A stretch of DNA of 53,358 nucleotides from a virus. The DNA lies in the IMG/VR virus record IMGVR_UViG_3300011013_000016, positions 1 through 53,358 of that record; one strand, 5' to 3'. Under the pieces are notes generated by a model. It saw only the letters and a list, made by a program, of their open reading frames with translations. It did not search any database and had not been told where the DNA came from. The position numbers were made by a program, and so were the translations under genes. Below, piece after piece: positions 36,833-50,268 of this stretch (positions are counted from its first letter, which is position 1; the number at the start of each line of letters is the position of its first letter).

Positions 36833-37408
36833 CTACACGATGGTAGTCAACAGGTCCAAGAACTGGCTGGTCGTAGCGGCGAACGCAGATGCGCCGGCAG
36901 AGAGCAACACCGCAAAGGGGATCTGGTCGTCAGAGGGGTACCCCCCACCCCCCTGACCACTCTGCTGGACGTTGGCGTGCGGGTCATGTCCGCCACGAGC
37001 GTCGCCATACCCGCCTTGCTGCTGCTGTGGCTGCTGCTGCTGCTGCTGGGGAGGCATGGCCTGCGTGTGACCCCCGCCGCCGCCCTGGTAGCCGCCTTGC
37101 TGCTGCTGTGGCTGCTGCTGTGGCTGTGTGTAGGGGGTGACCTCGAACACGCGCACCTCGGTGACCCACTTCTTCTCACCACCACCCTGTGGCTCGTAGC
37201 TGCGGCGCTGGAGCTTGCCCCGCACAGACACGAGCTTGCCTTGCTGGAGCAGGTGCCCGTACTTGTTGGGCACATCCACGAACAGGGTCTGGTCGAACCG
37301 GCGCCCGTCCTGTGCGAAGTCCCAGGTCTTGAGGCGGACGGGTGTGGTGTACTGGCGTGGTTGCTGCACAGCCTCGACGGTTCCGGCGAGCATGATGACG
37401 TTGAGCAT
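36833..37408 (-). CDS. ssb: Single-stranded DNA-binding protein with internal acidic tip
   Basis: 191 residues. OB-fold at about 1-95 (MLNVIMLAGTVEAV; DQTLFVDVPNKYGHLLQQ; KLVSVRGKLQRRSYE). Flexible Gln/Gly linker at 96-158 with two copies of a PQQQQGGY unit. Then DDQIPF at 160-165, the usual C-terminal protein-binding tip of bacterial SSBs. Unusually it is followed by 26 more, mostly hydrophobic residues (AVLLSAGASAFAATTSQFLD...). Binds and protects ssDNA and recruits partner proteins. Confidence 0.87.
   Translation of the reverse strand: MLNVIMLAGTVEAVQQPRQYTTPVRLKTWDFAQDGRRFDQTLFVDVPNKYGHLLQQGKLVSVRGKLQRRSYEPQGGGEKKWVTEVRVFEVTPYTQPQQQPQQQQGGYQGGGGGHTQAMPPQQQQQQPQQQQGGYGDARGGHDPHANVQQSGQGGGGYPSDDQIPFAVLLSAGASAFAATTSQFLDLLTTIV
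36998..37132. repeat. Short Gln-codon repeat (CAG/CTG) in SSB linker
   Basis: Two blocks of CTG-rich triplets on the plus strand (about 37016-37052 and 37097-37132) encode Gln runs in the SSB linker on the other strand. The unit encoding PQQQQGGY occurs twice. Such microsatellites expand and contract easily, so linker length may vary among relatives. Confidence 0.7.
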
Positions 37409-40674: not shown

Positions 40675-41792
40675 AGGAGACGGAGACGTTTCGTCTCGGG
40701 CGTGTGGAGATGAACGACTACGGCGCTGCCATGGCCACGTGGCGCCTGTCCAGGCTGAAACATGTGGGTGAGACGGACACCTTCACCGTGCGCCTGGTTG
40801 GGCCAATCCAGGTTGGGGTGCGCACCTATATGGTGGGTGTGATCCCCGGCCGAAAAGACATCTTCCTGGGGATGAACGGCAGGGTGTGGCGATTCCCTCG
40901 TCGAGTGCTGCTGACCGAAGCGCCAGCCCCACCCGCCAAGCCTCGACGCCACTGGTGGAAGTACCTGAGCCAGTGGGCGTGCGCCTTGCGGGAGTCCTGT
41001 GTGGACAGGATGGAGGTCGCCCCCGAGCAACGCCTGGGCAGTGCCGGACGGGAGGCGTACCAGAGCCTGGTGCGGAACCTTGTCTTTCGCTGCATCCTGG
41101 ATTGCGCATCGTTCGGCCTGGCCCGTACACCCCACACGCTGGCAAAGTGTGTGTCTCCGCACTGGACGGAGTGGGACTTGCTCTCGCCCGTGGTGCCCAC
41201 GGTGCGCCATGCACTCATGCTCTCGCTCCTGCTCGCTCTGCGGGACACGGAGGCCGGCGACCTGTTGGAGCTGGCTGGATTCTGCGAGTACAGGTGCACG
41301 CTGATCACCCGGCAGACGGGCATGGTCATGTACCGGGAGGCCGCACAGCAGCTCGCACGGCTGTGTCCGGAGTGGTGGACGGCGGGCTACGCCACAGACT
41401 GGGCACTGTACGGCAGCATCGAGCAGCGCATGAGGCGGCAGTTCACACGCATCGTGCATGAGGCCGAGCGGGTAGACAGCGCCGCGTACGCAGTGGCAGG
41501 CGTGCATGTGCAGGCAGCTGTCAAGCGCGCCTACGAGGAGCAGGCCCACGTGCGGCGGGAGACGTCCGAGGCCACGAAGGAGCGCATTGCCAAGCTACGG
41601 GCGTGGCACGCGATGTCGCGCGAGGAGCAGGATGTGCTGCGTGCACAGCGTGCACAGCGTGCACAGCGTGAAGAGCGCCAGGCGGAGACACACACGAGAG
41701 AGGAGCCGCCGCCGCTCCTTGGTCTCGGGATGCTCAGCCTCCACGGATCTGGTCGGGAAGCGGATCGAGAGGGTTCACTTGACGGCGGGTAA
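40638..41792 (+). CDS. Hypothetical protein, 384 aa
   Basis: GTG 40638 follows GGAGGAAGA; earlier in-frame starts lie in the previous gene and have no site. N-terminal ~90 residues are beta-rich (DTFTVRLVGPIQVGVRTYMV). The middle and C-terminus are helical (SLVRNLVFRCILDCASFGLA; AVKRAYEEQAHVRRETSEAT), ending with an Arg/Gln repeat and a Glu/Thr tail. No family recognised. Confidence 0.7.
   Translation: MGKKSASPIDVVKETETFRLGRVEMNDYGAAMATWRLSRLKHVGETDTFTVRLVGPIQVGVRTYMVGVIPGRKDIFLGMNGRVWRFPRRVLLTEAPAPPAKPRRHWWKYLSQWACALRESCVDRMEVAPEQRLGSAGREAYQSLVRNLVFRCILDCASFGLARTPHTLAKCVSPHWTEWDLLSPVVPTVRHALMLSLLLALRDTEAGDLLELAGFCEYRCTLITRQTGMVMYREAAQQLARLCPEWWTAGYATDWALYGSIEQRMRRQFTRIVHEAERVDSAAYAVAGVHVQAAVKRAYEEQAHVRRETSEATKERIAKLRAWHAMSREEQDVLRAQRAQRAQREERQAETHTREEPPPLLGLGMLSLHGSGREADREGSLDGG
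41641..41667 (+). repeat. Three tandem 9-bp repeats
   Basis: GTGCACAGC is repeated three times head to tail inside the preceding gene and encodes an Ala-Gln-Arg triplet run. Each unit contains a GTGCAC palindrome, the same hexamer found beside the ribosome sites at 43565 and 47109. Likely slippage-prone coding repeat. Confidence 0.8.
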
Positions 41793-41807
41793 CTCTGGGG
41801 ATACCTT
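41779..41807 (+). promoter_or_regulatory. Candidate sigma70-like promoter
   Basis: TTGACG (41779-41784), 17-bp spacer, TACCTT (41802-41807), 64 bases before the DUF932-like gene, whose ATG has AGAAGGAG upstream. The GGGGATACCTT context resembles GGGAATACTCTT at 43483-43494. Confidence 0.45.
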
Positions 41808-41870
41808 GTCAGGGCCAGGGGGTGTTCCCTTGGCACCGACGGACTGGGCCGGACCCCAGAAGGAGCACAC

Positions 41871-43409
41871 ATGGCGTACGACCTGTACGACCTGAACGAG
41901 AGCGACCGAAGCGAGGGGCCGTGGCCCACAGTGCAGCCGGCGATGGCCCGGTACCACGAGCTGGGCTACCCCACACACATCACGATCCGTGAGTGCAAGG
42001 ACGAGCCCGCACCGGACCCCGAGGACTTCGACCCCGAGGACGAGTTCGACCCCGAGGACGACACGGCCGCGCAGGGCTGGGGCGTGGACCCGAGCAGTGT
42101 GCCGGCCAGGGTGGTGCGCACCGTGGGCAAGGTGTGCTTCACGGTGGGTGACGAGGATGGCGTGAGCGAGGTGGCTCGGCTGCGTATCGAGCGGCACCAA
42201 CAGGTGCTGAACCGGATGGGCCTGGCGACCCCGCCGCCCGTGTTCGCTGCAGGCACTCGGGTCCGCAGCGACGGAGCGCAGCGCTTCACGGAGTTTCGCC
42301 AGGCGTGGGAGGAGATGCCCACGGTGGCCGAGGCGGTGCATGGCTTTGCCGCCTGCATTGCTCGTGAAGACCGGGAGCAGCACACCTTCAACCTGGGCGA
42401 TCTGCGCATGAACGATGACGGGACCGTGCAGGTGCCCGGCAACGGCACAGTGCCGTTCGAGCCCCGTGCCCTGCGCAAGGTGCTGAGCGTGACCCGCAAG
42501 GGAGACCACGCCCCGGCATCGGACTACAGCGGGGTGTTCCACAAGGCGGGCCCATTCCTGTCGGACCTGGAGCCGGACGAACGGGCCTGGATCGTGAACA
42601 AGCGCATGGCGCTGGCTGACCGTGACCAGCGGGTCATGTTGCACACCCGCCACAACGCCGATGCTGTCGGGGGGCGGAGCGCCTACGCAGTGACCGGTGC
42701 TGGCTACGCACTGCTCCCTGCAGACCAGCTCTTGCAGGGAGCGATCCAGGGCGTGGACATGCGTGGTGCCAAGGCGCGCATCACGTACAACCCTGACACC
42801 ACCTACGTGAAGATGGACGCCACGTGGGTGCCGGACAACTTCACGGACCTGGCTGCCGGGGACGCGTTCAAGGCGGGGATGCGCTTGTACACGAAGGACG
42901 ACGGCGGAGGGAGCATCCGAGGGGGCGGCATCGTGGAGGTGAACCGCTGCCGGAACCTGATCATCCTGGCCAAGGCGTATGCGGAGAGCTTCCGGTTCGC
43001 ACACAAGGGGGACCTGAGCGACATGGCCGCCCGGGTGGCGGACGGGTTCGGCGAGATCGTGCGGGGCTTCGCCCCGATGCTGGAGGACTGGGAGTTCGTG
43101 GAGTCCAAGCCCATCGCAGACGTGGAGCTGTGGGGCGAGCGCTTCCTGTCCGTGCCCGATGCGCTGACGTGGGCCGTGGAGAACGGCAAGCTCGCACAGG
43201 ACCTGAGCGACAAGGTGGCCCTCGAAGCCCTGCTCGGGGGCTACGCTGCGGAGCAGGCCGCCGGGTTCACCCGGGGCACGCTCACGGACATCGTGGACGC
43301 CGTGACCCGGGCCGCCTGGAACACGGCCCTGGACGAGATGCAGCAGCACCTCCTGGAGCGGGAAGCCGGGCTGCTTGTCCCCGTGCTCGTCGGAGCGGCG
43401 CAGGCGTAG
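41871..43409 (+). CDS. DUF932-like phage/plasmid protein, 512 aa
   Basis: The region from residue about 185 to 370 follows the DUF932 pattern: KGDHAPASDYSGVFHKAG, then VMLHTRHNADAVGG, AYAVTGAGYALLPADQLLQ and a middle with repeated strand-turn segments. DUF932 proteins are frequent in phages and plasmids; their role is not established. Residues 44-64 carry an acidic repeat (EDFDPEDEFDPEDD). Assignment by pattern, moderate certainty. Confidence 0.55.
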   Translation: MAYDLYDLNESDRSEGPWPTVQPAMARYHELGYPTHITIRECKDEPAPDPEDFDPEDEFDPEDDTAAQGWGVDPSSVPARVVRTVGKVCFTVGDEDGVSEVARLRIERHQQVLNRMGLATPPPVFAAGTRVRSDGAQRFTEFRQAWEEMPTVAEAVHGFAACIAREDREQHTFNLGDLRMNDDGTVQVPGNGTVPFEPRALRKVLSVTRKGDHAPASDYSGVFHKAGPFLSDLEPDERAWIVNKRMALADRDQRVMLHTRHNADAVGGRSAYAVTGAGYALLPADQLLQGAIQGVDMRGAKARITYNPDTTYVKMDATWVPDNFTDLAAGDAFKAGMRLYTKDDGGGSIRGGGIVEVNRCRNLIILAKAYAESFRFAHKGDLSDMAARVADGFGEIVRGFAPMLEDWEFVESKPIADVELWGERFLSVPDALTWAVENGKLAQDLSDKVALEALLGGYAAEQAAGFTRGTLTDIVDAVTRAAWNTALDEMQQHLLEREAGLLVPVLVGAAQA

Positions 43410-43424
43410 CCATACCGCTTTGCG

Positions 43425-43584
43425 ACCCCGTGAGCACAGGCCACGGGGTGTGGCTGTAGGGAACCTGGCTACCTGCCTCGCCGGGAATACTCTTCCACAC
43501 CCCGTGGCCCTTGCCCACCCCCCGTGCAGCACCGCACCCACGCTGCACGGGGGACACAACCCGGGTGCACGGAGAGAAGACATG
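43425..43584 (+). promoter_or_regulatory. Structured leader with competing hairpins
   Basis: Three stems: ACCCCGTG/CACGGGGT (43425-43432 with 43442-43449), GGCCACGGGGTGTGG with its exact complement (43439-43453 with 43495-43509), and CCCCCGTGCAGC/GCTGCACGGGGG (43519-43530 with 43542-43553). The first two share bases and exclude each other. A TACTCT (43488-43493) could be a -10. The leader ends in GTGCACGGAGAGAAGACATG (43565-43584), which is identical at 47108-47127. Looks like an attenuator, or a terminator followed by a new promoter. Confidence 0.55.
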
Positions 43585-44175
43585 GCCCTCATCATCAACA
43601 CGGACGCTGTGACAGGCGTGACCTGTCTGCAGGCGGACGGCAAGCTGACCGAGCTGGCGAAGGGGATGGGCATCGCCCTCGTCGGCGCCGGCATCTCGGA
43701 GATCACGGAGGAGAACGCGGCGGAGGTGTACATGCGCATCCACGCGATCGAGACCCTCGGCGGCAAGCTGTTCGGCGGCAAGGATCCCGAGCTGGTCACA
43801 CTGGCGGAGGTGCGGCAGCACACCGGCTTGCGCATCAACGCCCACGAAGAGCCGTTGGCCGAGTGGTGGTACCGGATCCGCAGCAGCTACAAGAGCGGGC
43901 CCCGTGTCTCGTTCGACGAGCACAGCTTCGGGTTGTGCAGGCACCTGCTCACCTGCATGACCGCACACCTGGAGACCCTGCAGGACAAGCTCGGCTACTT
44001 CAGCAGCGAGCACGAGCGCCTGGATGACCGGCGCTACACGCTGACCGAGCGCATAAAGCTCCAGGTCGTGAACCTGGCCACCCTCGTGGGCGAGATCGAG
44101 CAGGCATACTCGTGGGGCGAGCCCGAGCGCGAGTGCCACCACCTGGACCACCACGACGCCCGCAGGGAGGACTGA
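43582..44175 (+). CDS. Hypothetical protein, 197 aa
   Basis: ATG 43582 preceded by GGAGAGAAG. Compact protein with TGVTCLQADGKLTELAKGMG, helices (HLLTCMTAHLETLQDKLGYF) and a charged C-terminus with HHLDHHD. Expressed from the hairpin leader. No family recognised. Confidence 0.7.
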   Translation: MALIINTDAVTGVTCLQADGKLTELAKGMGIALVGAGISEITEENAAEVYMRIHAIETLGGKLFGGKDPELVTLAEVRQHTGLRINAHEEPLAEWWYRIRSSYKSGPRVSFDEHSFGLCRHLLTCMTAHLETLQDKLGYFSSEHERLDDRRYTLTERIKLQVVNLATLVGEIEQAYSWGEPERECHHLDHHDARRED

Positions 44176-44178
44176 GCG

Positions 44179-44238
44179 ATGACTGCAACCTGGTTCGACA
44201 TCCTGCCCGACATCCCGCTCGCTCGGGGGGTGCGCTGA
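44179..44238 (+). CDS. 19-residue coupled mini-ORF
   Basis: ATG with GGGAGG nine bases upstream and a stop that shares a base with the next ATG (TGATG). Sequence MTATWFDILPDIPLARGVR. It may be a genuine peptide or a coupling leader for the next gene. Confidence 0.4.
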   Translation: MTATWFDILPDIPLARGVR

Positions 44239-44552
44239 TGTGCTATTCCACCGCCGAGGTCAACTCCCTCGCTCGTGACTATGGCTGCCGGTTCATCTAC
44301 CGGCAGTACCCGGACGGCATCCCACTGTTCAACTCTAAGGGCTCTGTCTTCACCGATGATGGAACCGAGTCCGTCCGCCTCAGGTTCACTGACGGTGGGT
44401 GGGCGGTCGACGGCGATCACGAGGATGAACAACTCGGAGATCGCTCCCACCTGTTCTGTCGGTCGCTGATCCGGCGGAGGCTCCTGTCCGCCGACTACGG
44501 CTTTTGTCTTGATGATCTCGTTGACGACGAAGACAAGGAGCCCCGGCCATGA
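44238..44552 (+). CDS. Hypothetical protein, 104 aa
   Basis: Begins MCYSTAEVNSLARDYGCRFI, with Cys2, Cys17 and later Cys74/Cys90, and has an acidic C-terminus (DDLVDDEDKEP). The start is fixed by overlap with the mini-ORF and its stop overlaps the next gene (ATGA). Unrecognised. Confidence 0.7.
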   Translation: MCYSTAEVNSLARDYGCRFIYRQYPDGIPLFNSKGSVFTDDGTESVRLRFTDGGWAVDGDHEDEQLGDRSHLFCRSLIRRRLLSADYGFCLDDLVDDEDKEPRP

Positions 44553-44866
44553 TCTTCCCATGCGACAAGTGCCTTGCTCGTGAGGCGTATAGCGACGGCT
44601 CCTGCGACTGTTCCGTGAACGCTAGGCGCTTCCTGATCATCGAGGAGGGGGGCGTGTACGGGGGCCACAGCCCGGGCACGCACCCGACCACGGCGTGGTC
44701 CATGCGTCGTGTCGTCCGCATCCAGCACACGACCAGGCGGTGCCGCCCGGTCACACTCGTGACGTGGGAGCCGGTCGGGCCGGTCCCCGCGAAGTCCCAC
44801 TACACGAGCCGGGTGATCTCCATGCACTCGTTCCAGCGGTGGGCGAAGGAGGTGACCCGTGCGTAG
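44549..44866 (+). CDS. Cys-rich hypothetical protein, 105 aa
   Basis: N-terminus MIFPCDKCLAREAYSDGSCDC has four cysteines in a zinc-like pattern (C5, C8, C19, C21). The remainder is basic with a helix (SMHSFQRWAKEVTR). Starts in the ATGA overlap with the previous gene. Unrecognised. Confidence 0.7.
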   Translation: MIFPCDKCLAREAYSDGSCDCSVNARRFLIIEEGGVYGGHSPGTHPTTAWSMRRVVRIQHTTRRCRPVTLVTWEPVGPVPAKSHYTSRVISMHSFQRWAKEVTRA

Positions 44867-45563
44867 GGACGGCAGCTTCAGCCTGAAGGTGAGCGACACC
44901 CGCTACGTGTGGTCGCCCGTGGATGTGAGCGTGGACCTGGCGAGCGGCCTGTCTGACCGGGCTGGTTGGCGATGCGATGCGCTGCCCGGCCTGCTCGTGT
45001 ACTACACGCACCGGGCGCCGAACGACCGGTTTGACGGGAACCTGCCGAGTACCGTGAGTGCGTGCCACCACGAGCACGGCACCCGGTGCTGTAGCCCCGG
45101 CAGTCGGCCAACCGTTGTGCGGAGGGTCGTGTACCTGCACCTGCACACGAGCGTGGACTGGTCTGCGCCGCAGGAGATCGTGGTCAAAGCTGCGCAGCTG
45201 GACGGGGACCGCACGACGATCTCCGACATCCTTCGGGACGACTTCCGACCGCCCATGCCCGTGCCCGTCCTGCTTGAGCAGCACGGCGACGTGTGGAGCT
45301 ACAGCAAGGAGCTGACCCAGCACTTGCGCAAGGTCGCAAAGGCCGAGGTCCTGCGCATTGCTGGGCAGGAGTACCGGCTCGACAACAAGGCGTCTCTCCG
45401 TGCCTGCGCAAAGTACCTGGACACCCTTCGGGGCGCGCCATGTACCGTGGTGGCCGGCATGGTGGACGAAGAGGAGTGTGCCGTGCACGTGCATGTGGTT
45501 CACCCGACAGGCAGCGCCTCCTTCAACCTGCATCTTGTGTGCGTGGGGGTGTCCGATGCGTAG
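44859..45563 (+). CDS. Hypothetical protein, 234 aa
   Basis: GTG start behind GGAGG. Beta-rich N-terminal half with a CHHEHGTRCCS segment (possible metal site). Helical middle (YSKELTQHLRKVAKAEVLRI) and C-terminal strands (AVHVHVVHPTGSASFNLHLV). Overlaps the YkgJ-like gene by eight bases. Unrecognised. Confidence 0.7.
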   Translation: MRRDGSFSLKVSDTRYVWSPVDVSVDLASGLSDRAGWRCDALPGLLVYYTHRAPNDRFDGNLPSTVSACHHEHGTRCCSPGSRPTVVRRVVYLHLHTSVDWSAPQEIVVKAAQLDGDRTTISDILRDDFRPPMPVPVLLEQHGDVWSYSKELTQHLRKVAKAEVLRIAGQEYRLDNKASLRACAKYLDTLRGAPCTVVAGMVDEEECAVHVHVVHPTGSASFNLHLVCVGVSDA

Positions 45564-46092
45564 CTGTGGAGCCTGCAACGCCTGCTGTGTGACGCACAAG
45601 GTGAACGGTGTGTCCGGGCTAGCCTACCCGCACGACGTGAAGCCCTGCGGCCAGGCGTGTAGCCACCTGCACCCCGGCAAGCGCACCCGACGGTGCCGTG
45701 TGTACGAGACCAGACCAGCTGGTTGTCGCACCTTCCAGTGCCTGTGGCTGGCCGGCATCCTGCCCGAGCACATGCGCCCGGACCGAAAGGGTGTGGGCGT
45801 AGTGCTCGACGTGGACGGTGTGTACGAGGACGTGGACGGTGCGCCTACTCTGCGCGAGCACATCGTGAAGGTGTGGGAGCTGTACCAGGGCGCCGCTTCC
45901 AATCCCCTCGTGCGGGAGACCGTGCGTGTGCTCGTCGAGGGCCAGGGTGTCCCGGTCTTCGTCATGCACAAGGGCTGCATCATGGAGGTGCACGCACCCG
46001 AGGGCAGCCACACCGAGCGCATGATTCGGGAGCGTGGAGGGGACCTGCGCGAAGTAGGCTTCCTGGACACGCACCCGGGAGGTGGCCTGTGA
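45556..46092 (+). CDS. YkgJ-like cysteine-cluster protein
   Basis: Starts MRSCGACNACCVTHKV: the CxxCxxCC cluster (C4, C7, C10, C11) with further C31, C35, C47, C57, C62 in the CRVYETRPAGCRTFQC region matches the YkgJ-type zinc/iron-chelating family (CxxCCxxH with a following C-RP-C). Family members are little characterised and may bind Fe-S or zinc. The C-terminal 100 residues are helical. A metal-binding role is well supported; biological role unknown. Confidence 0.72.
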   Translation: MRSCGACNACCVTHKVNGVSGLAYPHDVKPCGQACSHLHPGKRTRRCRVYETRPAGCRTFQCLWLAGILPEHMRPDRKGVGVVLDVDGVYEDVDGAPTLREHIVKVWELYQGAASNPLVRETVRVLVEGQGVPVFVMHKGCIMEVHAPEGSHTERMIRERGGDLREVGFLDTHPGGGL

Positions 46093-46226
46093 TCTGGCCC
46101 ACACTCATGCTGGCCTGTGCCTGCGGGGGCGTCACGTCTATGCAGGCGAGTGCGCACGAGATCGTGATCACAGTCCTGATCACAGGCGCACTCATGCTAT
46201 GGAGTGCGTGCAACGACGGGCTGTAG
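46089..46226 (+). CDS. Small membrane protein, 45 aa
   Basis: GTG overlaps the previous stop (GTGA). Two hydrophobic segments: residues 4-18 (PTLMLACACGGVTSM, which contains a LxxC pattern) and 26-40 (IVITVLITGALMLWS). May be a two-TM peptide or a small lipoprotein. Unrecognised. Confidence 0.55.
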   Translation: MIWPTLMLACACGGVTSMQASAHEIVITVLITGALMLWSACNDGL

Positions 46227-46320
46227 GTACATATATGCTACACATGCACACGGCGGGGCCGGTCACATCTATTCGATGTCCGGCGCCGCAAATGCCTGTA
46301 ATCCATGAGTTCACCGCTCG

Positions 46321-46329
46321 TGGTATGAT
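46321..46329 (+). promoter_or_regulatory. Candidate extended -10 promoter
   Basis: TGG-TATGAT with no good -35, 65 bases before the gene at 46394. The 168-base intergenic stretch (46227-46393) also has CCCCTG...CAGGGG (inverted repeat around 46335-46360). No ORF seen there. Confidence 0.4.
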
Positions 46330-46393
46330 GATGCTCCCCTGTTCGGACCGGCCGACAGCAGGGGTCAACCACTGGCCGGATGGAGAGAGACAC

Positions 46394-47023
46394 ATGGAAC
46401 ACACAAACACGACACCCGCCCACTCCCCTGCACAGGCAGCGCTTGTGCTCGTCCGAAGGCTGGCCGGCACCACGGAGCGGCTCTTTGGTGGGCAGTGGAC
46501 GGGTATTGACTGGAGCCCCGGCGCCCTGCAGCGCTTGGGTGAGTGCATGGGGCTGATCATGGGTGTGAGCCTGTACGACGAGCCCCGCGCGGAGAGCCTG
46601 GCGCTGGATCTGGTGTCCTGCCTGGACCGGCTCAACACGTACGGTGGTGTGGACGACGAGGGCCGGCGCCTGTACCGGGTCCGCCTGTGCAGTGACGGCT
46701 CGTTGTGCGGCTTCAGCGTGTACTGGAACCGCCTGTGCACTCACACCAAGTGCGTAGACAGCGACGCCCTCAGGAAGGAGTGGGCGGAGCGCAAGGACAA
46801 CCCAGACCTGCGTGGACTGTGGATTCGCAGGGACTGGTACACGAAGAAGTGGCGGCCCCTGCACAACAGCGAGCGAGTCGTGGGTGTGGACAATGACGTG
46901 TGGGCAGACGGCTACGCCATGTACGTGATGGCCTTCAACGGTGGGCTGCTCTTCCACGGGTTCGGACACGACCCGCTTGCTGTGCAGGTGGGCACTGCCC
47001 GAGCGTGGAGCCTGCACACGTAG
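46394..47023 (+). CDS. Hypothetical protein, 209 aa
   Basis: ATG behind GGAGAGAG. Starts MEHTNTTPAHSPAQAALVLV. Contains Trp/Tyr-rich strands (YRVRLCSDGSLCGFSVYWNR; GLLFHGFGHDPLAVQVGTAR). Followed by a hairpin terminator at 47032-47056. No family recognised. Confidence 0.7.
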   Translation: MEHTNTTPAHSPAQAALVLVRRLAGTTERLFGGQWTGIDWSPGALQRLGECMGLIMGVSLYDEPRAESLALDLVSCLDRLNTYGGVDDEGRRLYRVRLCSDGSLCGFSVYWNRLCTHTKCVDSDALRKEWAERKDNPDLRGLWIRRDWYTKKWRPLHNSERVVGVDNDVWADGYAMYVMAFNGGLLFHGFGHDPLAVQVGTARAWSLHT

Positions 47024-47031
47024 GAGCACAA

Positions 47032-47056
47032 GGGCCGGGCACAAGCGGCCCGGCCC
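47032..47056 (+). terminator. GC hairpin after the 209-aa gene
   Basis: GGGCCGGGC (47032-47040), 7-base loop, GCCCGGCCC (47048-47056): 9-bp perfect stem without a T run, as is common in high-GC bacteria. Confidence 0.6.
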
Positions 47057-47067
47057 CGCTGCTCCGT

Positions 47068-47127
47068 CCACGGGGGTTTGCACTCAACCCCGTGGGCACA
47101 ACACCGAGTGCACGGAGAGAAGACATG
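47068..47127 (+). promoter_or_regulatory. Second hairpin leader like that at 43.5 kb
   Basis: CCACGGGG/CCCCGTGG stem (47068-47075 with 47088-47095), then a GGCACAAC segment and GTGCACGGAGAGAAGACATG (47108-47127), identical to the 20 bases at 43565-43584. The CACGGGG stem word is shared as well. Confidence 0.55.
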
Positions 47128-47211
47128 ACCCTGGAAACCCTGAAGCTCTACACCCTGGCGCTGTGCTGCGCCGCACTGTATGTGGCGCCTTTTGCCCTCG
47201 GGAGCCTGTGA
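47125..47211 (+). CDS. 28-residue hydrophobic peptide
   Basis: Begins with the conserved leader ATG. MTLETLKLYTLALCCAALYV is followed by APFALGSL: a single TM segment. The stop is coupled to an 8-codon frame (47211-47237) and then to the next gene. Likely a membrane peptide. Confidence 0.5.
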   Translation: MTLETLKLYTLALCCAALYVAPFALGSL

Positions 47212-47236
47212 TGACCTTCTGGCCGGAGGGCGTGTG

Positions 47237-47530
47237 ATGTACACCCTGATCTCCCTCGCAGACGTCCTGCGCGCCTTTGCCCTGGTGTTCCCTGTGGAGA
47301 CCGAGTACGTGCTCGCCCTGTACCTGCAGAGCCTGCGCACCGTCGGCGCTGTGTACGAGTGCGTGGGCGAGCACCTCGAAGACCCGGACCACGCCCTGGC
47401 GATGCACAGCTACGGCGCCCCGGTCAACGTGTGCGTGCCGATGTGGGACACGTCCGGAGCCCTGGACACGATCCTGCGCATCCAGCAGGTGTGCGCAGAG
47501 AACCCGCTGCCCGCCGAGCTGTCCTCGTGA
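47237..47530 (+). CDS. Hypothetical protein, 97 aa
   Basis: ATG shares a base with the stop of an 8-codon frame (TGATG). Helical N-terminus (YTLISLADVLRAFALVFPVE), with an Asp/Val-rich middle and a C-terminal helix (LDTILRIQQVCAENPLPAEL). No family recognised. It lies in an operon with two micro-ORFs. Confidence 0.65.
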   Translation: MYTLISLADVLRAFALVFPVETEYVLALYLQSLRTVGAVYECVGEHLEDPDHALAMHSYGAPVNVCVPMWDTSGALDTILRIQQVCAENPLPAELSS

Positions 47531-47625
47531 GCGCGCGAGAAGCAGCTGAGTGCGTGTGCGTGTGGGCGATGGTCCTGTGCGTAGGCGCTGAGCTGATGCG
47601 TGTGTCCGGGTGTGTGCACTGGTAG
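47527..47625 (+). CDS. 32-residue Cys-rich peptide
   Basis: GTG overlaps the upstream stop (GTGA). MSAREAAECVCVWAMVLCVG is followed by AELMRVSGCVHW: hydrophobic with four Cys. Followed by a strong terminator. May be a membrane or disulfide-rich peptide. Confidence 0.45.
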   Translation: MSAREAAECVCVWAMVLCVGAELMRVSGCVHW

Positions 47626-47648
47626 GCGCACCCCGCACGCTGCACACC

Positions 47649-47685
47649 GAGACCCCGCTCCGGCACCACGCCGGAGCGGGGTCTC
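47649..47685 (+). terminator. Strong 16-bp hairpin terminator
   Basis: A 16-bp perfect stem (47649-47664 with 47670-47685, ACCAC loop) beginning GAGACCCC and ending GGGGTCTC, followed by TTGCC. The best terminator of the window. Confidence 0.8.
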
Positions 47686-47778
47686 TTGCCTTCGGGGCCA
47701 CAGCACACCCCGGATCGGCCTTCACAGCGCAACTACAACTTTCTCACTCGGACCCAGCACACCCGGCTACCCAGCGGT

Positions 47779-47784
47779 TACACT
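47779..47784 (+). promoter_or_regulatory. Weak candidate -10 (TACACT) and leader hairpin
   Basis: The region between the terminator and the gene at 47843 has TACACT (47779-47784), a possible -10 without clear -35, then the GTGCCCC...GGGGCAC hairpin near 47788-47806 and GGGAGGGAGAGAAG as ribosome site. Confidence 0.3.
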
Positions 47785-47842
47785 CACTGTGCCCCACAGC
47801 GGGGCACTGACCCGGCAGACCCCGGGAGGGAGAGAAGCAACC

Positions 47843-48388
47843 ATGACCCGCAACCCCAATTCGATCGTGTGCATGATGACCGGCGCCACGCTGGCCACAT
47901 CCCTCGGCAACCTGCGCAGCCGGCTGGCGGAAAAGTCCGCTCGCCTCGGCAAGAATGCCGGAAGTATCTACGTGACACAGCGCAGCAAGGCAGAGGAGGT
48001 CTCCCGGTCCACCTACGCTGACACCAAGGCGCACAACGTCAAGGTGCTGGCCCTGTGGGGCGTGGAAGCCGTGGGCGGTAAGGACGTGGATGCCCGTGTC
48101 TTGCGCCCCCTGGGAAGCAAGGCCCCGGCCCCGTCCAAGGCCCGCACCCAGAGCAAGCCTGCGACGAAGACCGGCACCCTGCCGAGCCTGCAGCGCGCCT
48201 CGGCACTCACTTCGGCACTGATCGCAGGCGACGACGAAACCGCCTGGCAGGTCCTGCGTGCCATCGCAGCCGAAGCCGCACTGCAGCCCGAACCTAGCAA
48301 GACCCCGGCACCTGCACCGGCCGCTACCGTGCGCAGCGCTGTGGACCTGCTCAAGGCCGAGGGCTTCGGCGTGACACTCACAGCGTAG
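47843..48388 (+). CDS. Hypothetical protein, 181 aa, monocistronic
   Basis: Flanked by strong terminators on both sides, so probably a single-gene unit. Basic N-terminal half (LRSRLAEKSARLGKNAGSIY; VTQRSKAEEVSRSTYADTKA), Ala/Pro/Lys linker and C-terminal helix (TVRSAVDLLKAEGFGVTLTA). May bind nucleic acid. No family recognised. Confidence 0.7.
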   Translation: MTRNPNSIVCMMTGATLATSLGNLRSRLAEKSARLGKNAGSIYVTQRSKAEEVSRSTYADTKAHNVKVLALWGVEAVGGKDVDARVLRPLGSKAPAPSKARTQSKPATKTGTLPSLQRASALTSALIAGDDETAWQVLRAIAAEAALQPEPSKTPAPAPAATVRSAVDLLKAEGFGVTLTA

Positions 48389-48404
48389 CCAGACCCCGCA
48401 CCCC

Positions 48405-48440
48405 GTCGGCTCCGCTCCGGACACCCGGAGCGGAGCCGAC
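48405..48440 (+). terminator. 16-bp hairpin terminator
   Basis: GTCGGCTCCGCTCCGG (48405-48420), ACAC loop, complement at 48425-48440. No T run. Ends the rightward cassette. Confidence 0.75.
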
Positions 48441-48473
48441 TTGCGTCAGGGCGCACGCCCAGAGCTGCCCGGA

Positions 48474-48497
48474 CCCCGGGCCCCACAGCCCCGGCCC
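48474..48497. repeat. GC-rich direct repeat, left copy
   Basis: 24 bases beginning CCCCGGGCCCCACAGCCCCG and ending GCCC. It recurs at 48739-48762 with one C added. It flanks the crotonase fragment on its 3' side. Confidence 0.7.
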
Positions 48498-48720
48498 AAG
48501 GGCAGGTCGAAGGCCCTGAGGGCGCTGGCTCGGTCGGCGAGCATACACGCCTGGGGGAGCAGCGCCAGCTCGTGGGCCAGGGCCTGGGCGGCCTGGCGTG
48601 ACGGGCCCGTCGGCACCACGCGGTTGACCAGTCCCAGGGCCAGGGCTTCGTCGGCCGCAACCGGGCGCCCGGTCAGGATCAGGTCGAGGGCCCGTCGGCA
48701 CCGATGAGCCTGGGGAGCCC
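48487..48720 (-). pseudogene. Crotonase (enoyl-CoA hydratase/isomerase) fragment, frameshifted
   Basis: On the minus strand, GLPRLIGAD (48720-48694) is followed after a one-base shift by RALDLILTGRPVAADEALAL, then GLVNRVVPTG and LPQACMLADRASALRAFDLP. This is the well-known C-terminal half of bacterial enoyl-CoA hydratases (LTGRP, LGLVNRVVP, ADR-SAL). No start, no N-terminal part, a frameshift, and GC repeats on both sides: a host-gene remnant rather than a functional phage gene. Confidence 0.8.
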
Positions 48721-48738
48721 CGGCCCCCGCAGCCCCGG

Positions 48739-48762
48739 CCCGGGCCCCCACAGCCCCGGCCC
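48739..48762. repeat. GC-rich direct repeat, right copy
   Basis: Same sequence as 48474-48497 apart from one additional C. A partial third copy (ending GCAGCCCCGGCCC) lies at about 48729-48741. Confidence 0.7.
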
Positions 48763-49628
48763 GGGGCCCCGCCGGGCGTAGTGCCAGTTCGGCACCCCGC
48801 GGCCCCTTAGACCCACCGAGACCCTGCTCCGGACCCCAGCACAGCTGCAGCTATGGGGAGGCCCGGGGCGGAGTGTGGGGGGCTACGGGCGGGTGCAGTG
48901 TCCGGGATCGGCCTGGACAGCGGGTCCGCGGCCCCCCGCCGACCCGAGCCGGCCCCCCAGGTCCGGCCCCCGCCCCCCGCTCTGACTGTGCCGATCCCCC
49001 CGGGCCGTGCACAGGGCCGGGCTGTGCAGTGGGTCCGCTGTGCGGGGTGCGCAGCGGTGCACAGGGCAGGCCCCCCGCCGGGGCAGGCCCCCCGCCCCCC
49101 CCCGTGGGGCCCTCACTACTTAGTATTGGCCCCCCCGAGAAAATCCTCGGTTCTGGACCTTTGCCCCGTTCCTGGCTCGTCCGGGTCCGGTCGTCCCGAT
49201 GGCTCCGGGTTTTTCTTTCGTCCGGGGTCCCGAGTTGTGATCTGGGGTCCTGCTCCGCGGGGCGCGGTGCTGTTCGGTGGGGTTCTGGTAGCTGGCTGAG
49301 AGGAGACACAGTTGTGGCTGCTCCCCGCCTGTGGCTGGGTGTTTCCCCTGGTTGGGCCTTGTCCCTGTGGTGGAGCTGGGAGTTGGTTTGTGCCCTGTGT
49401 GGGCGCCACCCGGGCAGTCCTTCAGGTCTCAGCGGGGGGAGGGGCAACCCTGCTCCCGGGAGACACCGCCTGTTGGCCTGCGCTCGTTTTGCGGTGGGGT
49501 GAGCTTCGCAGTCCGCTTCTCCGAGGACCCGGACCCGTCTTCGGGTCCTGTCGGGGTGCCCTTCCGCTCGGGCTTCGGCCCGGTCGGTGTTCCCCCTCGG
49601 GGTGTGGTCTGCTCTATCCGGTGGTTTG
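48763..49628. other. Non-coding tract, C/G homopolymers then A-poor, T-skewed hairpin region
   Basis: No convincing gene on either strand. 48763-49130 has many C and G runs (nine Cs near 49095-49103) and CCCCGG repeats. 49140-49628 is strongly A-poor (about 6% A by count in two 120-base samples) and T/G/C-rich. It contains small tight hairpins such as GGACCCG-TCTT-CGGGTCC (49531-49548) and CGGGC-TTCG-GCCCG (49569-49582). Candidates are an ncRNA, origin or packaging site; none is proven. Confidence 0.5.
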
Positions 49629-49700
49629 TGTTATCCTGTGCACCTCCTCGTGTCCCCTGTGAGGGTACCGGCCCCCGTCTTGATGTGCAAGGCGGGGGCC
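49629..49700 (+). promoter_or_regulatory. Extended -10 and hairpin upstream of isolated gene
   Basis: TGT-TATCCT (49629-49637) is an extended -10 without clear -35. It is followed by GGCCCCCG/CGGGGGCC (49670-49677 with 49693-49700), a stem ending in GTGTTT. This is a terminator-like hairpin between the promoter and the gene at 49756, which suggests attenuation. Confidence 0.45.
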
Positions 49701-49755
49701 GTGTTTCCTTCGGGGGTGTGTTGACGGGTAGGGTGTGCACAGGAGGAGTCCTTCT

Positions 49756-50268
49756 TTGGCTGCTGCCCCGCACCGTCGCATCTCCGGCCAGCTCCTCAAC
49801 GGGGTGTCGGCTTCGATGAAGGTCGACGGGTCGGTCACGCCGGTCGACTTCACCTTCTCGGGGAAGAAGGCTGCGGTCCGGTACATCACCGAGGTCGTGC
49901 TCACGATCCACAGCACGGGCATGGATTTGTCGGCGGCCGCGGAGCTGCGCACGCTTGGGGCTGCGGGGCTGTTGGGGACTGGGATCCGGCTGTTCGTCAC
50001 CCAGGCCGGGCTGCCTGTTGCGGAGCTGGACCTGTTCCAGTCACCCGTCACCAAGATGGTCGACTTCTACCGGTACGGGGTCCAGGTCGGACACGTCGAC
50101 TCGATCGCGGCCGGTACGGACGAGGTTGTCGTCACGATCTCGTGGCCGGTCGAGGCCCCGCTCACGCTGCGGTCCGGGTTCGAGGACGCGCTCACCCTCA
50201 AGGTGTCGGACGATCTCACGGGCCTTGCGCTCTTCGAGGGGGATGTCAGGGGGTGGGCGACGAGCTGA
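49756..50268 (+). CDS. Isolated rightward gene, virion-like beta protein, 170 aa
   Basis: TTG 49756 is chosen because AGGAGGAG ends eight to ten bases upstream; a GTG at 49735 in frame lies before that site. The sequence is beta-rich (VSASMKVDGSVTPVDFTFSG; VHSTG-type strands; ISWPVEAPLTLRSGFEDALT) like small virion or decoration proteins. It converges with the leftward array and overlaps its last gene by 23 bases. No family recognised. Confidence 0.65.
   Translation: MAAAPHRRISGQLLNGVSASMKVDGSVTPVDFTFSGKKAAVRYITEVVLTIHSTGMDLSAAAELRTLGAAGLLGTGIRLFVTQAGLPVAELDLFQSPVTKMVDFYRYGVQVGHVDSIAAGTDEVVVTISWPVEAPLTLRSGFEDALTLKVSDDLTGLALFEGDVRGWATS

What the first reader, a model, noticed from the sequence alone, without database searches (positions are those of the whole stretch)
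43425..43584. Leader with mutually exclusive hairpins before the 197-aa gene
Five CCCCGTG/CACGGGG words alternate within 130 bases. Stem 1 (43425-43449) and a 15-bp perfect stem 2 (43439-43509) share bases and cannot coexist, and a 12-bp stem 3 precedes the ribosome site. The SD-adjacent TGCACGG can also pair with CCGTGCA of stem 3. This architecture is typical of attenuators or RNA switches, and no known riboswitch class was recognised.
Basis: partly seen in the sequence, partly recalled or inferred. Interest (0 to 1): 0.7.

Follow-up and report, generated by a model that had tools for sequence, protein, structure and literature searches.

The report
Repeated pseudoknot beside phage ribosome sites
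In one orphan phage, three genes share the same start-of-message RNA fold, a hairpin whose loop pairs with the bases just before the ribosome-binding site, which suggests a shared, untested way of controlling when those genes are translated.

Summary
The key feature was missed. The loop of stem 3 (GCACCC) pairs perfectly with GGGTGC, which ends 2 nt before the Shine-Dalgarno (SD) sequence: an H-type pseudoknot. The same layout occurs twice more in this phage, before two unrelated genes (46336-46396, 47066-47127), with compensated pairs CCGGCC/GGCCGG and GCACTC/GAGTGC. The A/C-rich linker, the 2-nt spacer and the SD GGAGAGA are shared. A strict scan finds exactly these three in the window, against 0.17 per shuffle and 4 chance hits in 1.04 Mb of other viral DNA. 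Stem 1/stem 2 exclusion and the CCGTGCA/SD-flank pairing are not shared by the other copies. No Rfam family matches; no relative of the leader was found in the phage, IMG/VR or genome searches made. Best reading: a repeated, start-associated pseudoknot controlling translation initiation. The structure is well supported by three paralogous copies; function and any trans-acting factor are inferred. It works like the T4 gene 32 or rpsO pseudoknots but is not a member of those families.

The parts
43430..43518 (+).
   Evidence: a flush hairpin also precedes copy 2, but with unrelated sequence
43519..43553 (+).
   Evidence: (-25.8 kcal/mol)
43534..43539 (+). Copy 1, P2 5' strand GCACCC in the loop
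   Evidence: pairs with 43563-43568 (duplex -10.2 kcal/mol)
43563..43568 (+). Copy 1, P2 3' strand GGGTGC, 2 nt before the SD
43571..43576 (+). Copy 1, SD GGAGAG; ATG at 43582
43582..44175 (+). 197-aa gene of unknown function downstream of copy 1
   Evidence: no Pfam or PHROG match; weak homologues in Brevundimonas phages and three IMG/VR contigs
46336..46364 (+). Copy 3, P1 hairpin: 46336-46343/46357-46364 (8 bp with wobbles), loop 46344-46356; P2 5' strand CCGGCC 46348-46353
46374..46387 (+). Copy 3, P2 3' strand GGCCGG 46374-46379, spacer AT, SD GGAGAG 46382-46387; ATG 46394
   Evidence: (-11.6 kcal/mol)
46394..47023 (+). 209-aa gene of unknown function downstream of copy 3
   Evidence: no phage match
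47023..47065 (+). H1 of copy 2: hairpin that ends exactly where P1 begins; its 3' arm holds CUCC, able to pair with the SD
47066..47097 (+). Copy 2, P1 hairpin: 47066-47075/47088-47097 (10 bp), loop 47076-47087; P2 5' strand GCACTC 47080-47085
47106..47119 (+). Copy 2, P2 3' strand GAGTGC 47106-47111, spacer AC, SD GGAGAG 47114-47119; ATG 47125
   Evidence: (-8.1 kcal/mol)
47125..47211 (+). 28-aa hydrophobic ORF downstream of copy 2
   Evidence: translation
47810..47845 (+). Uncertain related leader (copy 4): SD GGAGAGA at 47829; pre-SD hexamer CCCGGG lies in a local hairpin, not in a pseudoknot
41795..41873 (+). Uncertain divergent leader before the 512-aa gene: a 7-base complement (TCTGGGG / CCCCAGA) with the second strand directly before AGGAG
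   Evidence: could be chance

Best explanation
The leader is one of three copies of a cis-acting, start-associated RNA element of this phage. A GC-rich hairpin (P1, 8-12 bp) carries a loop in which six bases pair with the hexamer that ends two bases before the Shine-Dalgarno sequence (P2). This gives an H-type pseudoknot with an A/C-rich connecting strand and the SD directly at its 3' edge. Shown: the sequence anatomy, three copies with compensated pairings, and rarity elsewhere. Inferred: the fold meets the 30S subunit at docking and sets translation initiation, most likely as a switchable element recognised by one shared factor (a phage or host protein, or a small RNA), so that three genes of the right-hand cluster are controlled together. 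The direction of control (a clamped pseudoknot that represses, or one that aids docking or keeps the SD open) is not decided by the data.
For: Three copies in one genome with copy-matched P2 strands: all 18 P2 pairs are Watson-Crick, and four of the six P2 positions differ on both sides between copies. Strict scan: exactly these three in the window, mean 0.17 per shuffle, 4 in 1.04 Mb of other viral DNA and none of those at a gene start. 3 of 3 window copies but 0 of 118 other IMG/VR stretches with the same 3' pattern pass the pseudoknot test. GGAGAGA with a start codon in reach occurs only four times in the window, three of them with the pseudoknot. The downstream proteins are unrelated at the N-terminus, so the leader and not the coding sequence is what is shared. 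Loop-only and 3'-side-only shuffles give joint chances of about 3e-6 and 3e-8.
Against: Only three paralogous copies in one orphan phage; no orthologous leader was found. Copies 1 and 2 share a 29-nt segment, so they are not fully independent. The tests are post hoc, and a more lenient shuffle gives 0.157, 0.031 and 0.027 per copy. In copy 3 a nested hairpin competes with P2. SD accessibility estimates do not point to one direction of control. No probing, expression or host data.
Confidence: 0.6

Rival explanations
1. Attenuator or riboswitch as first proposed: stem 1 versus stem 2 is the switch, and stem 3 versus the CCGTGCA/SD-flank pairing controls the ribosome site of the 197-aa gene.
For: The stems exist and exclude each other; the region folds with z -4.27.
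Against: Stem 1 and the CCGTGCA pairing are absent from the other two copies; no terminator near the leader; no Rfam riboswitch; stem 2 is far more stable than stem 1 (-53.8 for the whole hairpin against -17.0 kcal/mol).
Confidence: 0.08
2. Constitutive element: the flush hairpins and pseudoknot insulate the ribosome site from upstream RNA, protect the mRNA 5' end, or act as a docking site for the 30S subunit or protein S1, without any regulation.
For: The SD stays outside both helices. S1 binds pseudoknots and a pseudoknot is needed for standby-mediated translation of tisB (PMC7708055). In copy 3 a TATGAT lies just upstream (46324-46329), so the transcript could begin at P1.
Against: Does not by itself explain why only these genes of the cluster carry it; the promoter scan found no promoter-like site in the region.
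Confidence: 0.22
3. Chance or simple duplication: a GC-rich genome with a duplicated ribosome-binding segment, the loop complementarity being accidental.
For: 66% GC. The 50 nt upstream of copy 1 would contain the complement in 16% of shuffles. Copies 1 and 2 share a 29-nt segment.
Against: The difference between copies 1 and 2 inside P2 is matched on both strands; copy 3 has a wholly different P2 and is still paired; joint shuffle chances are about 3e-6 or less.
Confidence: 0.05
4. DNA-level repeats: the hairpins are operators or terminators acting on DNA or transcription, and their nearness to the SD is incidental.
For: GTGCAC in copies 1 and 2 is a palindrome; strong hairpins follow upstream genes.
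Against: Copy 3 lacks GTGCAC; the P1 sequences are not conserved; the spacing to the SD is fixed; no U-tract at these hairpins.
Confidence: 0.05

Closest known systems
T4/T2/RB69 gene 32 mRNA pseudoknot (autogenous operator of the ssDNA-binding protein)
   Same: H-type pseudoknot in the leader of a tailed-phage gene; controls translation. [quoted passage not shown]
   Different: Lies about 67 nt upstream of the start codon with an A+U-rich tract in between and serves one gene; here P2 ends 2 nt before the SD, there is a short A/C-rich linker, and there are three copies before unrelated genes.
Start-associated sequences (SAS/ESAS) of Cluster K mycobacteriophages and Cluster EF Microbacterium phages
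   Same: Repeated element at the ribosome site of a subset of non-structural genes, often with an inverted repeat upstream; function unknown (PMC3203893, PMC7302621).
   Different: Fixed 13-bp sequence. The authors found little support for mRNA hairpins in Cluster K. My strict scan found no such pseudoknot in the stretches of TM4 and AnnaSerena examined. Here the sequence varies while the pairing is kept.
IncI/IncB-type plasmid repZ/repA pseudoknot (from general knowledge)
   Same: A hairpin loop pairs with bases immediately upstream of the SD of the rep gene; the pseudoknot activates translation and an antisense RNA competes for the loop.
   Different: Long-range, one gene, plasmid replication. 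No antisense RNA was sought or found here, and the open-SD role is only suggested by copy 2.
rpsO (S15) and tisB mRNA pseudoknots
   Same: Pseudoknots in bacterial mRNA leaders that act on 30S docking; S1 binds such pseudoknots (PMC7708055).
   Different: Single bacterial genes with known partners; no sequence relation was tested or seen.

Membership tests
H-type pseudoknot (structural class) | Hairpin loop pairs with a single strand outside the hairpin | tested here: met
   6 of 6 Watson-Crick pairs in each of three copies; by sequence, not by probing
H-type pseudoknot (structural class) | Compensatory changes in P2 | tested here: met
   Between paralogous copies only: CCGGCC/GGCCGG and GCACTC/GAGTGC against GCACCC/GGGTGC; no orthologues to test
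T4 gene 32-type operator | Pseudoknot far upstream with an A+U-rich tract to the SD | tested here: not met
   P2 ends 2 nt before the SD; linker of 8-9 nt, A/C-rich
T4 gene 32-type operator | Leader belongs to the SSB gene and is bound by SSB | tested here: not met
   The three downstream genes are of unknown function; the weak SSB match is on the other strand at 36833-37408. Binding is not testable here
SAS/ESAS start-associated sequences | Conserved 13-bp motif such as GGGATAGGAGCCC at the ribosome site | tested here: not met
   Leaders have GGAGAGA flanked by variable P2; TM4 and AnnaSerena sites show no pseudoknot in the strict scan
Known riboswitch or other Rfam family | Match to a covariance model at gathering score | tested here: not met
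   0 matches in the whole window; only sub-threshold noise for the leaders
Transcription attenuator | Terminator hairpin with U-tract in the leader | tested here: not met
   Only terminator-like site in 41700-49800 is at 49669
Regulated translational operator | A factor that binds the copies and changes translation | not testable with these tools
   Needs binding and reporter experiments

The most novel reading that the evidence does not exclude
A phage translational regulon built on a pseudoknot cassette: one trans-acting factor (protein or small RNA) recognises start-adjacent pseudoknots whose P2 sequence is free to vary, and so controls several unrelated genes at the ribosome-binding step.
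Probability: 0.3. Interest if true: 0.72.

Novelty: new variant of a known kind. Interest (0 to 1): 0.52.

Why it matters
Regulatory pseudoknots in phage mRNA leaders are rarely documented; a 2010 review names T4 gene 32 as perhaps the only viral case of translational autoregulation by one (PMC3014915). Three compensated copies in one genome, each two bases from the SD and before unrelated genes, would be a natural experiment on how a fold at the edge of the ribosome site sets translation. They could also suggest what to look for in the unexplained start-associated repeats of other phages. Nested-structure prediction and Rfam do not show it, so similar elements may be overlooked elsewhere.

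Tried and rejected
Relatives by protein: terminase (IMG/VR and genome contigs), a 366-aa putative head protein, a 706-aa virion protein, and the 197-, 512- and 209-aa proteins gave no close relative. A small alignment with Brevundimonas phage proteins reached three IMG/VR homologues of the 197-aa protein, none with the pseudoknot leader. DNA patterns for the leader: 0 hits for the first; matches without the pseudoknot for the others. blastn of two leaders against the phage collection gave only chance-level hits. MAFFT of the three copies misaligned the loops, so pairs were counted from explicit coordinates. AlphaFold2 of the 197-aa protein from a single sequence was unusable (mean pLDDT 49), so no fold search was made. 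Considered and rejected as membership: attenuator, known riboswitch, SAS/ESAS, gene 32-type operator. The GGAGAGA leader before 47843 and the leader before 41871 are listed as uncertain and not counted as copies.

Full report
Observation. The stems described are present at the stated coordinates: stem 1 of 8 bp, stem 2 of 15 bp perfect, stem 3 of 12 bp perfect with an 11-nt loop. The region 43380-43620 folds better than all 200 dinucleotide shuffles (z -4.27). Five CCCCGTG/CACGGGG words lie in 127 nt; the word itself is not enriched in the window (29 against 24.4 expected).

What was missed. A self-search with the leader found a second place in the same record, 47094-47132, matching the SD end at 90%. 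Reading both showed that the loop of the hairpin before each SD is complementary to the six bases that end 2 nt before the SD: GCACCC/GGGTGC in copy 1 and GCACTC/GAGTGC in copy 2. A loose pseudoknot scan and reading of the cluster gave a third: CCGGCC/GGCCGG before the 209-aa gene at 46394. In the order copy 1, copy 3, copy 2, all have P1 (12, 8 and 10 bp), a loop of 11-13 nt, an A/C-rich linker (ACACAACCC, TCAACCACT, ACAACACC), P2 (6 bp), a 2-nt spacer (AC, AT, AC), SD GGAGAG, and an ATG 5 or 6 nt after the SD.

Is it more than chance? The pattern CAACN{8,10}AYGGAGAGAN{2,4}CATG, drawn from the three copies, occurs 3 times in the window with 0 expected. Of 118 other IMG/VR stretches with that pattern, none passes the pseudoknot test (hexamer pairing plus a stem of at least 8) that all three window copies pass. 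A strict scan that ignores the linker and GGAGAGA gives exactly these three in the window, a mean of 0.17 in 150 shuffles, and 4 hits in 1.04 Mb of other viral DNA, none of which looks like a gene start. Shuffling only the loops gives a joint chance of about 3e-6, only the 3' sides about 3e-8. Shuffling the whole 50 nt upstream is more lenient: 0.157, 0.031 and 0.027 per copy. The loose first scan on its own was not above its shuffles. These tests are post hoc, and copies 1 and 2 share a 29-nt segment, so the figures are indicative. The cross-pairing matrix shows strands matched copy by copy: copy 3 pairs with neither of the others, and copies 1 and 2 differ at one pair, C-G against U-A. GGAGAGA with a start codon in reach occurs only four times in 53 kb, all in this gene cluster. 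The fourth, before the gene at 47843, has its pre-SD hexamer in a local hairpin instead.

What is not shared. Stem 1, and hence the stem 1/stem 2 exclusion, has no counterpart in copies 2 and 3. A long hairpin (H1) does abut P1 without a gap in copies 1 and 2, so stem 2 may belong to the architecture, but its sequence is not conserved. No terminator-like site lies near the leaders and no Rfam family matches.

Context. The contig is an orphan tailed phage: large terminase and a weak portal match, a 2207-aa tail protein, Cas4-like exonuclease and replication initiator, a Rad52-like protein and a weak SSB match. No close relatives were found for the proteins tried. The three leaders lie in the + strand cluster at about 41.8-48.4 kb, whose genes are of unknown function. 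Homologues of the 197-aa protein at 31-39% identity exist in Brevundimonas phages and three IMG/VR contigs, but their leaders lack the element. The element therefore seems to go with this phage's regulation, not with the gene family; that step is inference.

Mechanism. The SD lies outside both helices, directly at the 3' edge of P2. From the general position of the SD helix on the 30S platform (general knowledge), a fold there would meet the ribosome at docking. Three readings remain: an operator clamped by a shared factor; a docking aid or S1 site (S1 binds pseudoknots; PMC7708055); or an IncI-type switch in which P2 prevents an upstream CUCC from closing the SD. The last is best seen in copy 2, where CUCCGU can pair with ACGGAG in a nested fold that excludes P2. 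Nested accessibility estimates do not point one way, so the direction stays open.

Comparison. The T4 gene 32 pseudoknot is the phage precedent, but sits about 67 nt upstream of the start with an A+U-rich tract, before one gene (PMC3014915). SAS/ESAS elements are the precedent for start-associated repeats (PMC3203893, PMC7302621), yet the stretches of TM4 and AnnaSerena examined show no such pseudoknot in the strict scan, and SAS is a fixed sequence. The finding is thus a new variant of a known kind (a leader pseudoknot), repeated as a cassette.

Limits. One phage, three paralogous copies, no probing, no expression data, host unknown. In my judgement the pseudoknot is about 0.85 likely to be real, control of translation about 0.6, and a shared trans-acting regulator about 0.3.

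Noticed in passing
48446-48751 (minus strand): Fragment of an enoyl-CoA hydratase (crotonase) reading frame (Pfam ECH_1, E 3e-4; 74% identical DNA in a Streptomyces replicon), inside a C-rich stretch with no predicted phage gene. It could be a host-derived fragment or a mis-assembly, and hints at an actinobacterial host.
   Followed up: partly
48440-49300: Very C/G-rich stretch with CAGCCCCGGCCC repeats and a gap of about 1.4 kb without a predicted gene.
   Followed up: no
47649-47685 and 48405-48440: Two perfect 16-bp hairpins with 4-5 nt loops that share the CGCTCCGG core, each just after a gene end; terminator-like but without a U-tract.
   Followed up: no
47810-47845: Fourth GGAGAGA leader: the pre-SD CCCGGG lies in a local hairpin next to the SD rather than in a pseudoknot.
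   Followed up: partly
41784-41873: Leader of the 512-aa gene: TCTGGGG and CCCCAGA can pair over 7 bp, the second directly before AGGAG. Possibly a divergent copy, possibly chance.
   Followed up: partly
L146, about 200-300 (IMGVR_UViG_3300030412_000586): Homologue of the 197-aa gene also has GGAGAGAAG before its ATG and follows a hairpin with two alternative folds that looks like an ordinary terminator.
   Followed up: partly
46324-46329: TATGAT, a -10-like hexamer 6 nt before P1 of copy 3, would put the transcript start at the base of the pseudoknot; no -35 match was found.
   Followed up: no
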